A model generated the notes under the pieces. The model saw nothing but the letters and a program-made list of their open reading frames with translations, was not told the origin of the DNA and ran no database searches. From IMG/VR virus record IMGVR_UViG_3300047170_000049, positions 62,001 to 126,000 of that record: a DNA stretch of 64,000 nucleotides; one strand, given 5' to 3'. Shown piece by piece: positions 2,831-56,879 of this stretch; within the stretch, counting starts at the first letter, position 1, and each line of letters opens with the position of its first letter. The position numbers were made by a program, and so were the translations under genes. Source of the DNA: a virus.

Positions 2831-2881
2831 ATTCTTAGCTTTTTTATTTATTATTATTTGGCTTAAGTTTTTAAAATATAA

Positions 2882-2899
2882 GCCGAATAGTCATATAGA
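2882..2899 (+). promoter_or_regulatory. Promoter-like motif GCCGAATAGTCATAT
   Basis: Lies 12-29 nt before the plus-strand gene at 2911. The same ten-base block GCCGAATAGT followed by an ATAT box occurs at 9847 in front of the other small plus-strand pair. A 6-bp inverted repeat (GGCTTA/TAAGCC, 2860-2865 and 2879-2884) abuts it. Function as a promoter or operator is inferred. Confidence 0.45.
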
Positions 2900-9784: not shown

Positions 9785-9846
9785 GAAGCATTCAGGAATA
9801 CTTAAGGGATTTATTGTGATTATTTCCTAAAGTTTTAACAAAAATT

Positions 9847-9862
9847 GCCGAATAGTAATATG
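9847..9862 (+). promoter_or_regulatory. Promoter-like motif GCCGAATAGTAATAT
   Basis: Second copy of the GCCGAATAGT block, 14-29 nt before the plus-strand gene at 9876, same spacing as the copy at 2882. Recurrence supports a regulatory role. Confidence 0.45.
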
Positions 9863-32514: not shown

Positions 32515-32792
32515 TTTCTATCCACTAATACGACAAACATCTCAGGGAGAATGATGCACTTTTGGCTATCGAATTCAAAAATGTTTTTAACTGCAGCATG
32601 TGAGCTTACGTCGGAAGCCCTAACGTACACGACATCGCCAGCATCGAATTGCTTAGACTTAGCTAATACTTTAGTACCGATAAGTGCATTAGAAATCTTA
32701 TCATCTTGAACCCAACCACGACTGGGAGTAGCTTTTTCTTTATTAAAAACGAGTGGTTCAACCATTACTTGGTCATTAACTGTTAGAAACAC
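32511..32792 (-). CDS. GroES-like co-chaperonin
   Basis: 93 aa, GTG start with AAGGGAG 7 nt upstream. Fits a GroES ring subunit: first strand VNDQVMVEPL, a flexible stretch at about 16-36 in the place of the mobile loop, KVLAKSKQFDAGDVVYV (cf. GroES GDxVxF), and the closing strands KCIILPEMFVVLVDR. Length matches GroES (about 95 aa) rather than T4 gp31 (about 110). Expected to cap the phage GroEL encoded at 38464. Confidence 0.8.
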   Translation of the reverse strand: MFLTVNDQVMVEPLVFNKEKATPSRGWVQDDKISNALIGTKVLAKSKQFDAGDVVYVRASDVSSHAAVKNIFEFDSQKCIILPEMFVVLVDRK

Positions 32793-33772
32793 GTCTTAAC
32801 TCCCTTAAGTTTTAAAACCTTCTGTTCGATGACATTAAGCTTGTCTAAGTTACTATATAGCACATTTAGTAGTTCATTCGACTCAGTATTTACATGGGGG
32901 TTGACGAATTCTGAGTTAGGGTCTGCAGTGTAATCCCCAAGTAACTCATCTGCATCTTCCGTATTAAGTGGCTGGTCTAAGCTAGAATACTTAGTGGCTT
33001 CTACCAGTTCATCGACTTCTTTTTCAGTTAATTCAAGAATTTCAGCTATTTCTTTATTTCTTAAGTCAGGCCGAGTTTGTTTAAGCTTACGAATCTTATA
33101 AAGCTTCTTTTGATTATGCAGGCCAATGGTGGCAGAGGAAGGTGAAAAAGAATTTGCTATCAAATTTGCTAGCATACGTCCAATGGCCATGGCGTGGAAG
33201 CTTGATGAGTTTTCATCTAATACATATTTATCTACGGCCAAAACTAATGCCTCATTTGAAAGCTGCAGTATGTCGCCAAACTCAGAGTACCCCTTATAGG
33301 ATGACTTAGTGAACACCTTGGCACGGTTAAGAGCAAGGTGGAGATACTTGTTGATGATTTCTTCACGGGCAACTTTAATCTTCTCGTATAGGGCATGGAG
33401 GCGCTTATGTGGCCTTGTAACGTTCTGCACGGCAAATAATACGAACTTGTAATTAATTGGAACAGCGTACATCAATTGAGGCTTACGTTTAGAAATTGCT
33501 TCGCCAACAGTCGCCGTAAAGGTATCCTCACGGCCACGAAAGTAAGCGCGAGCCATCTTGATACCACCTTTAGTGTGGTTAATCTTCTCTATGAACTTAT
33601 CATAAACACGTTTACCATCGGCGGTGGTCTTAAGCTTCTTTGAGAACGCTATCTCCAATCCATTGAGCTTAACGAACATAGCTTCAGTATCCGTATCTGG
33701 AAGCTTCTTCAATTCTGCATTAAGCTCTTTTATGTAAATATGCACGACGTTGCTAGAGTCTTTGTCTTCCAT
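32783..33772 (-). CDS. Phage sigma factor lacking region 4.2
   Basis: 329 aa. Region 2-like segment at 139-210: FGDILQLSNEALVLAVDKY is the core-binding helix pattern and SFHAMAIGRMLANLI the -10-recognition area. An HTH-like stretch at 239-262 and SLDQPLNTEDADEL match region 3 and its linker. Region 4 begins (LNVIEQKVLKLKGV) but the protein ends at 329, before the -35-binding helix. T4 gp55 also lacks a normal region 4. The N-terminal 135 residues are unassigned. A good candidate reader of the late-type motif. Confidence 0.75.
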   Translation of the reverse strand: MEDKDSSNVVHIYIKELNAELKKLPDTDTEAMFVKLNGLEIAFSKKLKTTADGKRVYDKFIEKINHTKGGIKMARAYFRGREDTFTATVGEAISKRKPQLMYAVPINYKFVLFAVQNVTRPHKRLHALYEKIKVAREEIINKYLHLALNRAKVFTKSSYKGYSEFGDILQLSNEALVLAVDKYVLDENSSSFHAMAIGRMLANLIANSFSPSSATIGLHNQKKLYKIRKLKQTRPDLRNKEIAEILELTEKEVDELVEATKYSSLDQPLNTEDADELLGDYTADPNSEFVNPHVNTESNELLNVLYSNLDKLNVIEQKVLKLKGVKTCF

Positions 33773-38361: not shown

Positions 38362-38392
38362 TTAAGTTAACTATTTTGATTATTTTTTTAAG

Positions 38393-38420
38393 TTTTGTAG
38401 ATAAAAGGTGATATAACAGA
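38393..38420 (+). promoter_or_regulatory. Shared extended -10 promoter, copy B
   Basis: TTTTGTAGATAAAAGG then TGATATAACAGA, ahead of groEL (ATG 38464). Matches copies A, C and D over the TTTTAG-like block and GTGATATA. Confidence 0.7.
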
Positions 38421-44657: not shown

Positions 44658-45120
44658 AAATTTATTTCATTCACTAGAAATCAAGGTAAAGAAATTAGAC
44701 CCCAAGGCTGTAATCCCTAAGTATGCGAAAGATGGTGATGCTGGCCTAGACCTAACCGCCATCTCCAAATCATTTGAGCGCCATAAAGACGGTAGTAGAA
44801 TTATAACCTACGGTACAGGGCTAGCCATTGAAATCCCCAAGGGTTACGTTGGGTTAATCTTCCCCCGTAGCTCCATTTCTAAGACCTGCCTTAATCTCAC
44901 TAATTCCGTAGGGGTTATTGATTCAGGCTATCGTGGCGAAATCATGGCTAAATTTAGAATTGATAGTGCAGACCGTGCTACCGCTGGTAGTTCTTATAAG
45001 GAAGGTGAGCGCATCATGCAATTGATTGTAATGCCTTACCCACAGGTAACCTTAGTAGAAGCCGATGAACTTTCTGACACTGAACGTGGCGAAGGTGGAT
45101 TCGGGTCTAGCGGAAAATAA
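44644..45120 (+). CDS. dut: dUTP diphosphatase
   Basis: 158 aa from ATG 44644, with GGGGAAAG upstream; an upstream in-frame start would overlap the RuvC gene further. Trimeric dUTPase motifs in order: DGDAGLDL (1), PRSSIS (2), GVIDSGYRGEI (3), ERIMQLIV (4) and RGEGGFGSSG (5). Prevents uracil incorporation and supplies dUMP to ThyA. Confidence 0.96.
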   Translation: MDNLKNLFHSLEIKVKKLDPKAVIPKYAKDGDAGLDLTAISKSFERHKDGSRIITYGTGLAIEIPKGYVGLIFPRSSISKTCLNLTNSVGVIDSGYRGEIMAKFRIDSADRATAGSSYKEGERIMQLIVMPYPQVTLVEADELSDTERGEGGFGSSGK

Positions 45121-45129
45121 TTTAGACGA

Positions 45130-45153
45130 TTTTAGAAAATAAGTGATATAGAG
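45130..45153 (+). promoter_or_regulatory. Shared extended -10 promoter, copy C
   Basis: TTTTAGAAAATAAG then TGATATAGAG, 18 nt before the ATG at 45171; the best match to copy A. Confidence 0.7.
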
Positions 45154-45170
45154 TCCTTAAGGAGTTGACT

Positions 45171-48892: not shown

Positions 48893-51800
48893 ATGAATTT
48901 CAAACCAATCGTACCCCCTCATACACACCCCCTTAGCCTTGATTCTGGCAACTCAGTTAAGCAATTTATCAAAGCCTCAGCTAAGACATTTGGTCATAAG
49001 GCCATTGCTATTACTGACCACGGCACCATGGGTGCAATCATTGAGGCTTACGAATACTCTAAAGAACTTAAGAAGAAAGAAGGCTTGGATATTACAATCA
49101 TTCCAGGCATAGAACTCTACCTGAAGCCTGATGAGACAGACCCCACACGCGACCGTCGTAACGGTAAGCCCGTATCCTACTACCACGTCACATGCCATTT
49201 TAATAACTTCCAATCATACCTCAAGTGCTGTGAACTCACTAAGAAGGGGTATGAACGTGGTCTATGGAAAGGGTCCGAGTATAAGCCTCTCATCACATGG
49301 GACGAGCTTGAATCCCTATCGGGCCAAGTTACGCTCTTCTCGTCATGTCTAATTGGCGCGGTTCTCGGCCCCTGGATTAACGGCTCCAAAGAACAATCTG
49401 AACAGAACTTTGTTCGTTTAAAAAACATTGCTGGTCCCGAAAAATTTTTTGTAGAAATCTTCCCATACGAAGTATCCAAGGACTGGGACAAAAAAGACAT
49501 GGTATTCAAAACCAAGCCCTCGTCTTGCGATTGCCCTAATGGAATGATGCAAGTTGGTGCCAATGAATGGGTAATGCACCTAGCTGAGAAATACAACGTT
49601 CCAATGGTCGCGTCGGAAGATGCCCACTACGCCAACCCTGATGATAAAGCCATTCAAGATGCTCGACTCTCTAACGGTAAAGAACAATGGAAAATGGCTG
49701 ATGTTAACTGTCTGCACACTTCCGATTGGCTCTTCGCAGAGTTTAACCGCCTCCACATCGGAAAATTTTCAGAATCTCAATTTCAAGAAATTATTGAAAA
49801 CTCTTATAAGTTTGCTGACCAATCTAAGGGGTTTAGTCCACATTTTAAACCGGCACTGCCGTTATACCCACTTGAGCTTGAAGCTGGAATGAATGAAGAT
49901 AATCAACAAGCCAAGCACGTTGTTAACTTAATTCAAAAGAAAGGCCGTGTTGACTTCTCTAATGATATTTACCGTAACCGTTTAAATAAAGAGCTTAAAG
50001 AACTAGCCTTTAATGGCAAAATCAATATCCTGCCCTACTTCTTAACACTTCATACCGTTATTGAGCACTGTGAAAAGAATAACATCTTGGTAGGCCCTGG
50101 ACGGGGCTCTGCCGCTGGGTCTCTACTTGCATACGGTCTGGGCATTACTAACGTTGACCCTATTAAAGAAGACCTTAGTTTTGAGCGTTTCTTTGACGTT
50201 ACTCGTGTTGAAGAGGGTCTAGCCGATATTGATACGGACTTTAGCGACCGCGATGCGGTCATTGAATTCGCTAAGAAGGAATGGGGTGACCGTTTTGCCT
50301 ACATTGGAGTCGCCCAGAAGTTCAAAACCAAGATGGCACTCAAAGACATTGATAGATTTTTGAATGGCGAAGTTTCTAAGCTCACGGAAGACGTGGCAAA
50401 ATCAGTTGGTAACTCACCCCAAGGCGTTGACGAAGAGCGATTCTTGAACGGATATACTGACCAAGACGGCAATACTGTAGACGGCGAACTCGACACCAAC
50501 CCCAAACTACTTCGCTACCTACAAGAACACCCTAAAAATGCAGCGTTGCTATTCAAGATGATTGGTATTACCCGTCAAATGGGCCGTCATGCGTGTGGGG
50601 TTATCATAGCAGACCGCCCTGTCCATGAGTTTATCCCCCTAATGAAGGTTAAAGGCGAGCTTATCACCCAGCTTACCCCCGAATGGGTCCAGAAGTGTGG
50701 TGGCGTTAAGTACGACTTCCTAGGTCTAAACACGCTTTTAGACGTGCAAAAGTGTGTACGTCTTATCAAGGAACGCACTGGGAAGGTGATTGACCCATGG
50801 AAAATTGAAGACACTCCTGAAATCTGGGAAGCGGCAGCTAATAACCCTTCGACTATTTTCCAGTTACATACGCAAACGGTCCGTCATGGTTTACAGACTA
50901 TGCGTCCTAAGAATGTTACTGAAGGCGCTATCCTTACATCAATCTTTCGACCAGGCGCTACAGATGCCGTTTCAGATGAAGACCCTAATAAGACCATGGC
51001 AGATATATTCTTAGAGCGTTGGACTGGTCAGCGTGAGACTAAGTATATTCACCCAGACCTTATTCCTTACTTGTCTGTCACCAAGGGTGTTATCACTTGG
51101 CAAGAACAAATTATGAAAATAGTCCATGAACTCGGTGGGTTAACTATGGTTGAGACTCAAAAGGTTCGTAAGTCTATTTCTAAGAAAGTTTCAGATGACC
51201 TGATTAACTCACTGAACAAGGTTGAGAAACATTTGGTTGAGGTGCGGGGCTGGACTAAAGAACAGGCTAACTCCTTGACTTCACAGATGAAAGCTTCAGG
51301 CCGTTACTCGTTCAATAAATCCCACGCTATTTCCTATATTTACATTGCGCGTGCGTGCGCATATTTGAAGTACCACTACCCATTGGAATGGTGGACTGCC
51401 GTATTATCTAATGCTGATAAAGAAGACTTAAAAGGCTACTGGAAGCATGTGTCTAAGTTTGTTCGCTTCCCTGATGTCAATAAGTCCAACGATTCCTTTG
51501 AGATTTCTAGCGAAGGTGGTGTAGAGTTTATTAGAGCGCCCTTGAGCCTACTGGAAGGCATTGGAGCGGCTGCCCTAGCTGAGATAACGTCTAAGCGTCC
51601 GTTTGTGGATTTTAGAGACTTTATCACGCGAATTGACCGTAGGGTAATTAACAAGCGTGCCGTGGCTAACCTTATTTTCAGTAATTCTTTAGATTCGCTA
51701 TTTACTACGGATAGGACCGACGAAGAAAAATATGCTGAATATTTGAATCTAAGGGCTGAGATTGCTGGCACTACCCGTGAAGCCTTCCCCCAGGAGTACA

Positions 51801-54632: not shown

Positions 54633-55679
54633 ATGTCTAAAAAAGAAATTGTTCCAGCTAACAAATGGATGTCTAAATTACTTAAGCACGAAGCTGCAGT
54701 TAAATACGAATTGCAAGAAGACGCTAAGTACATGAAGTCACCAAGCCCTGGTGTTAATTATTTGTTTGGTAAGAAAATGGGAATGAAGCCTGGTACGTCC
54801 ATGCTTCTTTACGGTCCTGCTAAGTCAGGTAAAACCTTATTGTCACTAGCTTTTGCAGGTCAACTACATCGTGATGACCCAGAAGCAATCATTCTCCACT
54901 TTGATACGGAAATGCGTGAAACCGTGCCTACATGGGCTAAAGTATTTGGCATTGATATGAGCCGAATCGTCACCTACAGCACCAATCGCCCTGAAGAAAT
55001 CTTTGACTTCATCGCTACTGATGTTCAGGCGATGATTCAAGAAGGTGCTCCAATCAAGTGTATTATCATTGACTCACTTGCTGCACTTTCTTATCCCAAA
55101 GAAGCCAACGCTGAAAAGACTACTAACCATGTTATGGGTGATGCCGCTGCGTATCTCAACCGTGGTATGAAAGCAATTCTTCCAGTGATTCGTCGTGGTG
55201 GCATTTACACATTCTTGTGTCAACACGTTCGAGATAATATGGACCCACAAACTGCCAAATATCAAAAGTATGTGATACCTGGTGGTCGTGGTCTTAAACA
55301 CTTGTGCGAATACTTCGTCTTGTGTGAGAAAATTAATAATAAAGATTCCAAAACCTTTGATTCTGTTAAGACCGATGGTAGCGGTAATCCTATTCAAACT
55401 GGTCACCACATTCGCGTAGCAATGGAAGAGAATTCTTGCGGTCCACAAAATCGTAAGATTGAAATTCAATTGTCATATGTGGATGGTATTGTTAACCAAC
55501 ACGAAGAAATCGCAACTCTAGCAGTTAACATGGGAGTTATTCAACGCCCTAATAACATGACCTATGCTTACGGCGATAAGAAATGGGTTGGTTACGCTAA
55601 CTTTGTTGAAGCCCTCAAAGCAGATTTTGATTTGCAAAGGGAATTACTTGACAAGGTGGTAGAGAACGACCTAACATAA
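54633..55679 (+). CDS. RecA/UvsX-like recombinase
   Basis: 348 aa from ATG 54633 (AGGAG upstream). Walker A GPAKSGKTLLS (about 59-70), Walker B CIIIDSLAAL (about 142-151), and a following block with QHVRDNMDP. Length matches RecA/UvsX. Strand exchange for recombination-dependent replication with SSB and Mre11-Rad50. Confidence 0.9.
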   Translation: MSKKEIVPANKWMSKLLKHEAAVKYELQEDAKYMKSPSPGVNYLFGKKMGMKPGTSMLLYGPAKSGKTLLSLAFAGQLHRDDPEAIILHFDTEMRETVPTWAKVFGIDMSRIVTYSTNRPEEIFDFIATDVQAMIQEGAPIKCIIIDSLAALSYPKEANAEKTTNHVMGDAAAYLNRGMKAILPVIRRGGIYTFLCQHVRDNMDPQTAKYQKYVIPGGRGLKHLCEYFVLCEKINNKDSKTFDSVKTDGSGNPIQTGHHIRVAMEENSCGPQNRKIEIQLSYVDGIVNQHEEIATLAVNMGVIQRPNNMTYAYGDKKWVGYANFVEALKADFDLQRELLDKVVENDLT

Positions 55680-55689
55680 GGAAATAAAA

Positions 55690-55900
55690 GAATTAAGGAA
55701 TTGTGGCAGGGGAGAACGTCGGTACACGAGCATCAGTCCCCTGAAGCAAGCCGACCTAGGATTCCTTAGTAGTACAGTGGCGTGTATAGCGAACTCTTAT
55801 GAGAAGTCAGTAGCTAGGGTGTGTCCTTATCGAACACGGGGCTTAGAAAGCCCTGGGGCATGAACTAAGTGTTATAGCTGCGCCACGGTACTTTTTATTG
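55690..55900 (+). ncRNA. Structured RNA candidate with pseudoknot
   Basis: The 231-nt gap between RecA and primase has no coding frame. Stem TAAGGAAT/ATTCCTTA (55694-55701 with 55761-55768) encloses an H-type pseudoknot: CAGGGGA/TCCCCTG (55707-55713, 55737-55743) interlocked with GTCGG/CCGAC (55718-55722, 55751-55755). A second domain is closed by AGTAC-A-GTGGCG with CGCCAC-G-GTACT (55771-55782, 55881-55892) and holds a hairpin GGGCTT/AAGCCC (55839-55853) and others. CTTTTTATT follows the last stem, like a terminator. Not tmRNA, RNase P or 6S by any landmark I know. Confidence 0.65.
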
Positions 55901-55910
55901 AAAGAAATTA

Positions 55911-56879
55911 ATGGAAGAAAGATTACGTCAATTCTTTGCAGACCAGGGCATTTCTCCCTCCAGTGAGACTGGCCGCTCATTTATTTTTAACTGCCCAGCT
56001 TGTGGTGGCACCCAAAAGCTTTACATGCAGAAGTCGGACGGCTCATCTGTATGCTTTAAACAAGGCACCTCTACATGCCCTAAAAATCGAAGTAAGCCTC
56101 AATTCGTATTAGCTCAATTAACTTCCTTGCCAGTTAAAGAAATAGCCGATATAATTTATTTAAGAACGGCCAAACTAGAGCAAGACACCTTAAAAATAGA
56201 CTTTAGTGATAGGAAAATCACTAATAAAAATCAAGAGTTAGCCCTTGCCACACTAGAGATGCACTTCGTACCCCTATTAGATAATAGTGCTAAACCTGGT
56301 GTCGATTATTTAGCCAGTCGAGGAATTTCCTTTGAGATTGCACAGAAGTATGGGATTATGTACTCAGCGGTCTTTAAGAGAGTTATCTTCCCTGTCATCA
56401 TGAAGAACACTCTATATGGGTGGCAAGCACGCGCTATCGAGAAGAACGTAGAGCTTAGGATGAAGAACATGCCTGGTTATTGGAAGAGCCAGTCATTAAT
56501 GTTCTACGATAATATAATTAACAAAGATTTTGCTATCTTAGCAGAAGGACCCGTTGATGCACTGAAATTTGAAAAGGTCGGTGGGTTTGTAGCGTCAATG
56601 GGTAAGACCATCTCTACGGCTCAATTAAAGCTTCTTAAGGATGCAAAAATTAAGAGGCTCTATCTTGCATTGGATGATGATGCCGATGATAAATTAGATG
56701 CTATTAAAAAGTATTTGGATGATGGAGTAACCAATCGAATGCAGTTTTTTAAACTCAAAGTGCCTTCACATAGAGAGGATTTTGGGGCCTGCACATACGA
56801 AGAATGTGAAGAGGCATTTAGGAATGCTAAATCCATGGAAGACTCAATGATTATCTTACCGCTGGGAGTATTTAGATGA
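55911..56879 (+). CDS. DNA primase (Toprim)
   Basis: 322 aa. N-terminal zinc-ribbon (NCPACGG ... VCFKQGTSTCP) then a primase core with Toprim signatures ILAEGPVDALK and ALDDDADD. Shorter than bacterial DnaG and without a helicase domain; the helicase is a separate gene two positions downstream. Starts 11 nt after the structured RNA. Confidence 0.85.
   Translation: MEERLRQFFADQGISPSSETGRSFIFNCPACGGTQKLYMQKSDGSSVCFKQGTSTCPKNRSKPQFVLAQLTSLPVKEIADIIYLRTAKLEQDTLKIDFSDRKITNKNQELALATLEMHFVPLLDNSAKPGVDYLASRGISFEIAQKYGIMYSAVFKRVIFPVIMKNTLYGWQARAIEKNVELRMKNMPGYWKSQSLMFYDNIINKDFAILAEGPVDALKFEKVGGFVASMGKTISTAQLKLLKDAKIKRLYLALDDDADDKLDAIKKYLDDGVTNRMQFFKLKVPSHREDFGACTYEECEEAFRNAKSMEDSMIILPLGVFR

What the first reader, a model, noticed from the sequence alone, without database searches (positions are those of the whole stretch)
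55690..55900. Roughly 210-nt structured RNA with a pseudoknot between RecA and primase
In a genome with almost no intergenic space, a 231-nt gap with no reading frame contains an 8-bp stem enclosing an interlocked pseudoknot (7 bp + 5 bp), then a second domain closed by an 11-bp stem with one mismatch and ending in a T-run. It may be a regulatory leader, a small phage RNA acting on the host, or an RNA partner of a phage enzyme. It resembles no class I can name.
Basis: partly seen in the sequence, partly recalled or inferred. Interest (0 to 1): 0.78.

Follow-up and report, generated by a model that had tools for sequence, protein, structure and literature searches.

The report
Orphan two-domain phage RNA with pseudoknot
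Between its recombinase and primase genes this virus of bacteria carries a roughly 213-letter stretch that codes for no protein but is predicted to fold into a knotted RNA with its own start and stop signals; no relative of it could be found, so what it does is unknown.

Summary
In a 159-kb IMG/VR phage record that is ~96% coding, the 231-nt recA-primase gap has no plus-strand reading frame of 30 aa or more. The named stems are all present: an outer 8-bp stem (11 pairs with G-U), an interlocked 7-bp + 5/6-bp H-type pseudoknot, and a terminal 11-bp stem with one mismatch followed by T5. None of 2000 dinucleotide shuffles matches the enclosed pseudoknot, and it is the best of 21,228 tiles of this genome. 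Plain folding energy is only moderately low (z about -3.3; about 20 of 597 window tiles score lower). A sigma-70-like promoter (TTGACA-18-TAACAT) overlapping the end of recA would start a transcript ~8 nt before the first stem; the T-run would end it. That anatomy fits an independent ~213-nt sRNA, but no transcript has been seen. No relative was found: Rfam (E up to 5), blastn on phages and plasmids, covariance models in 44 related phage records, five exact-word scans. The nearest phage (67% RecA identity) has a 26-nt gap; others have plain terminators or gene insertions there. Covariation could not be tested. Best reading: a lineage-specific orphan phage sRNA that also occupies the place of the recA terminator; function unproven.

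The parts
54633..55679 (+). RecA/UvsX-like recombinase gene (348 aa); its 3' end overlaps the putative RNA promoter
   Evidence: PF00154 RecA E 8e-12 and phrog_97 UvsX-like in the bulk scans; 36% identity to Myxococcus phage Mx1 RecA-like protein
55648..55677 (+). sigma-70-like promoter TTGACA-N18-TAACAT, predicted start ~55684
   Evidence: genome-wide about 30 sites of >=10/12 in 319 kb of strand, roughly 1 per 10 kb; consensus match only
55684..55896 (+). proposed ~213-nt non-coding RNA
   Evidence: promoter-like site, absence of ORF, structure and T-run; transcript not observed
55692..55770 (+). domain 1: outer stem P1 (55692-55702/55760-55770) enclosing an H-type pseudoknot
55707..55743 (+). 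pseudoknot stem S1, CAGGGGA/TCCCCTG, 7 bp
   Evidence: pair probability 0.95-0.999
55718..55755 (+). pseudoknot stem S2, GTCGGT/GCCGAC, 5 bp + G-U, crossing S1
   Evidence: significance as part of the triple
55771..55896 (+). domain 2: terminal stem AGTACAGTGGCG/CGCCACGGTACT around a branched ~96-nt interior (with hairpin CGGGGCTT/AAGCCCTG, 55837-55855), then T5; probably the intrinsic terminator
55911..56879 (+). DnaG-type primase gene (322 aa) starting 14 nt after the T-run
   Evidence: phrog_47 DNA primase in bulk scan; 32% identity to Mx1 primase

Best explanation
A lineage-specific phage small RNA of about 213 nt. Proposed working: host (sigma-70) RNA polymerase starts at a promoter inside the 3' end of recA (inferred). 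The transcript folds into a 5' domain, an H-type pseudoknot locked inside an outer stem (predicted, statistically supported), which shields the 5' end and presents a 13-nt interhelical loop and an A-rich groove-lying loop as the likely binding surface (inferred). The 3' domain's long closing stem plus T5 ends the transcript (inferred), so the same element also stands where related phages keep the recA terminator. The RNA would then act in trans, most likely by binding a host or phage protein or RNA; the target is not identified.
For: Enclosed pseudoknot: 0 of 2000 shuffles, best of 21,228 tiles in the genome. P1, S1 and terminal stem mostly >0.9 probable in free folding. Promoter-like TTGACA-18-TAACAT ends about 7 nt before the predicted start, and sites this good occur only about once per 10 kb of strand. 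T5 directly follows the 11-bp closing stem. No ORF. In 10-11 of 38 related loci a strong compact terminator follows recA, against 0.5-2% of control stretches, so a transcript end here is expected; in the window the two-domain RNA takes that place.
Against: No transcript data. No homolog anywhere searched, so no covariation. The promoter is only a consensus match; the scan found 7 sites of >=9/12 in the local 2.4 kb against 5.8 expected by chance. A 96-nt interior in the terminator stem is unusual, and the simple scanner did not list it as a terminator. MFE alone is not exceptional.
Confidence: 0.45

Rival explanations
1. Cis-acting leader/attenuator of primase: domain 1 senses a ligand or a replication protein (for instance the phage's own ssDNA-binding protein, as gp32 binds its mRNA pseudoknot in T4) and decides whether polymerase reads past the terminal stem into primase.
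For: Order is pseudoknot, then terminator-like stem and T5, then the primase start 14 nt on; an ssb-like gene lies in the same gene cluster (Mx1 counterpart annotated ssDNA binding protein); GTGGC occurs both in the P1-S1 linker and in the terminator 5' arm, so an 8-bp alternative helix 55700-55707/55882-55889 exists. T4 gp32 binds a pseudoknot 67 nt upstream of its own start codon (PMC3014915).
Against: The alternative fold is 11 kcal/mol worse and has zero probability in the ensemble. The T4 operator sits before the ssb gene itself and is followed by an A+U-rich unstructured run, neither of which is the case here. Relatives' primases have no counterpart leader.
Confidence: 0.25
2. Elaborate transcript end only: terminator plus RNase-blocking structure that ends and stabilises recA mRNA, with no separate RNA function.
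For: Strong terminators follow recA in 10-11 of 38 related loci against 0.5-2% of controls, including L002/L028, L003/L031 and L013/L032.
Against: Domain 1 is far more than a terminator needs and is separately significant; a compact hairpin suffices in the relatives that have one; the promoter-like site would be unnecessary.
Confidence: 0.2
3. Decoy or antitoxin-mimic RNA against a host defence protein, as pseudo-ToxI of phage PhiTE mimics the type III antitoxin ToxI pseudoknot.
For: A phage-encoded H-type pseudoknot is the known form of such a mimic (PMC3475682).
Against: PhiTE mimics are tandem ~36-nt repeats; there is no repeat here and no sequence match; the host and its toxins are unknown.
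Confidence: 0.05
4. Guide-like or mobile RNA belonging to an enzyme (IscB/TnpB, retron, intron).
For: Insertion into a gap that is 26 nt or less in several relatives.
Against: No Rfam hit to any family; no TnpB zinc-ribbon domain or reverse transcriptase in the genome; a single copy.
Confidence: 0.05

Closest known systems
T4/T2 gene 32 mRNA pseudoknot (translational operator of the phage ssDNA-binding protein)
   Same: H-type pseudoknot in a phage replication-gene cluster, two short stems, next to the start of a replication gene
   Different: Lies before primase, not ssb; enclosed in an outer stem; 13-nt interhelical loop; followed by a terminator-like domain rather than an unstructured A+U-rich run (PMC3014915)
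ROOL and GOLLD ornate phage RNAs
   Same: Non-coding, elaborately structured RNAs carried by phages, function unknown
   Different: They are much larger (many GOLLD members exceed 800 nt), form nanocages and often lie near tRNA islands (PMC12286853); no Rfam match and no tRNA nearby here (the only tRNA is about 68 kb away)
pseudo-ToxI of phage PhiTE (type III antitoxin mimic)
   Same: Phage-encoded pseudoknot RNA
   Different: Tandem ~36-nt repeats with sequence similarity to ToxI; here one single-copy, two-domain RNA (PMC3475682)

Membership tests
Any Rfam 15 family (ribozymes, riboswitches, tmRNA, RNase P, GOLLD, ROOL etc.) | Covariance-model score at the gathering threshold, or at least a weak E-value match | tested here: not met
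   No gathering match in the whole window; none at E <= 5 in 55640-55940
tRNA/tmRNA | ARAGORN-detectable tRNA-like fold | tested here: not met
   No gene called in the window
T4 gene-32-type autoregulatory pseudoknot | Pseudoknot directly upstream of the phage ssb gene, followed by an A+U-rich unstructured run over the start site | tested here: not met
   Pseudoknot lies upstream of primase; followed by a 126-nt structured domain
Independent phage sRNA | Own promoter | tested here: inconclusive
   TTGACA-18-TAACAT at 55648-55677, a consensus match only
Independent phage sRNA | Own terminator | tested here: inconclusive
   11-bp closing stem then T5, but a 96-nt interior; not listed by the simple terminator scan
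Independent phage sRNA | Discrete transcript during infection | not testable with these tools
   No transcript data held
Conserved structured RNA | Covarying base pairs in homologs | not testable with these tools
   No homolog found with single-sequence models in 44 records nor with word scans
OMEGA/TnpB or retron RNA | Partner nuclease or reverse transcriptase in the same element | tested here: not met
   No PF07282 or PF00078 in the genome; single copy
Type III antitoxin (ToxI-like) | Tandem repeats of ~35 nt with a toxin gene beside them | tested here: not met
   No direct repeats at the site; neighbours are recA and primase

The most novel reading that the evidence does not exclude
A new class of phage RNA in which an enclosed H-type pseudoknot forms the recognition domain of a trans-acting small RNA, expressed from inside the replication gene cluster, that captures a host protein or RNA (for example a defence or RNA-decay protein).
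Probability: 0.2. Interest if true: 0.7.

Novelty: new member of a known kind. Interest (0 to 1): 0.42.

Why it matters
Phage-encoded structured RNAs are easily overlooked because they are poorly conserved and unannotated. A 213-nt two-domain RNA placed in the core replication cluster of a phage, unique to its lineage and with apparent promoter and terminator, is a concrete candidate for an RNA acting in host takeover or counter-defence, and it can be tested by one small-RNA sequencing experiment if a host is found.

Tried and rejected
Decayed or small coding gene: no plus-strand frame of 30 aa or more. Known RNA family: none. Copy elsewhere in the genome: none. Homologous RNA in the recA-primase gap of relatives: the L013 136-nt gap looked similar by eye (short interlocked helices, a GCAAGCC word), but its local alignment is no better than shuffles (50 of 300 reach it). 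Exact 17-base words in viral contigs and GTDB genomes gave only chance hits: L095/L096, L098-L111 (mostly ~39-kb phages), L112-L118 with a 17-20-nt match and no structure, and L119-L122 with identical flanks, i.e. one element. G038 match to the domain 2 model: a 35-nt hairpin only, E 0.006 for one genome with 43 genomes searched, taken as chance. Riboswitch-type antiterminator: alternative fold 11 kcal/mol worse. CRISPR array, TnpB or retron partner: none found. VIPR vrRNA: would need 9-16 YNNGG repeats (PMC13142463), not seen here.

Full report
What is there. The window is part (62001-126000) of a 159,288-nt IMG/VR virus record. Between a RecA/UvsX-like gene ending at 55679 and a DnaG-type primase starting at 55911 lies a 231-nt gap without a plus-strand reading frame of 30 aa or more. 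The genome is about 96% covered by ORFs; many of the other gaps over 120 nt look like promoter regions, a tRNA gene or coding frames that my start-codon rule missed.

Structure. A nested folder gives P1 (55692-55702/55760-55770), S1 (55707-55713/55737-55743) and the terminal stem (55771-55782/55881-55892) with pair probabilities mostly above 0.9. S2 (55718-55723/55750-55755) crosses S1 and so cannot appear there. For an H-type pseudoknot the loops are feasible: L1 4 nt, L3 6 nt and A-rich, with an unusually long 13-nt interhelical stretch. I scored 'outer stem + two crossing stems' by summed stacking energy: -44.6 kcal/mol here, shuffles -23.3 +/- 6.4, none of 2000 as good, and the best of 21,228 tiles over both strands of the genome. 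The next best tile in the genome is -42.3, so the value alone is near the genome's expected extreme; the weight comes from its falling in one of the few non-coding gaps. The ordinary folding energy is only moderately low.

Transcription signals. TTGACA-N18-TAACAT (55648-55677) lies in the recA 3' end; a start at ~55684 would leave ~8 unpaired nt before P1. Such sites (>=10/12) occur about once per 10 kb of strand in this genome. The terminal stem runs directly into T5. In 38 related RecA loci strong terminators follow recA in 10-11 cases against 0.5-2% of control stretches, so this junction is often a transcript end. In this phage the two-domain RNA occupies it.

Relatives. RecA- and primase-based searches gave about 40 related contigs and Myxococcus phage Mx1. 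The closest (67% RecA identity) has a 26-nt gap; others overlap (L012), carry an 80-nt or 136-nt gap with a plain terminator (L002, L013), or have a terminator and inserted genes (L003); Mx1 has 3 nt. Covariance models of each domain, built from the single sequence, match nothing else in 43-44 whole related records apart from one chance hairpin. Rfam, blastn on phages and plasmids, and five exact-word scans found no homolog.

Interpretation. The combination of promoter-like site, 5' pseudoknot domain, 3' terminator-like domain and absence of coding favours an independent sRNA (0.45). A cis-acting primase leader (0.25) is weakened because the alternative fold that would open the terminator is 11 kcal/mol worse. 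An elaborate terminator/stabiliser without other function (0.2) fits the relatives but not the excess of structure. Enzyme-associated RNAs are unlikely: no TnpB zinc ribbon or reverse transcriptase in the genome. It is not a member of any family tested; in kind it joins phage-encoded structured RNAs such as ROOL, GOLLD, the T4 gene 32 pseudoknot and pseudo-ToxI, from all of which it differs. That the transcript exists, that the pseudoknot forms, and what it binds are all inferences.

Noticed in passing
window 2863-2889, 9828-9854, 38388-38414; genome G000 13068, 47707, 48528, 128813, 130050, 153810, 154342, 154779: A motif matching the flagellar sigma-28 (FliA) promoter consensus (from memory), TAAAGTTT-N11-GCCGATAA: 15 hits with <=3 mismatches at spacer 11 against 0-7 at other spacers, about 10 of them plus-strand and mostly intergenic, 7-88 nt before gene starts; four relatives show no such peak.
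   Followed up: partly
window 32786-33772 (-): A phage-encoded sigma-70-family factor (region 3 Pfam match; PDB SigA relatives, best E 1.5e-7); it may read the sigma-28-like promoters.
   Followed up: partly
window 2803, 5487, 23777, 28287: A 34-nt repeat AATTAAGATTTT...TTTGAT recurs, in several cases in intergenic promoter regions, possibly an upstream operator or activator site.
   Followed up: no
G000 49442-49516 (-), L008:11442-11516: The only tRNA gene found in the record, tRNA-Met(CAT), in a GC-rich gap.
   Followed up: no
L003:4033-5880: In this relative the recA-primase junction holds a terminator and two main reverse-strand ORFs (392 aa and 154 aa, N-termini look like secretion signals), so the site accepts insertions.
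   Followed up: no
window 44658-45164: A 507-nt stretch left uncalled by my ORF selection that reads like a dUTPase-type coding frame, perhaps with an unusual start codon.
   Followed up: no
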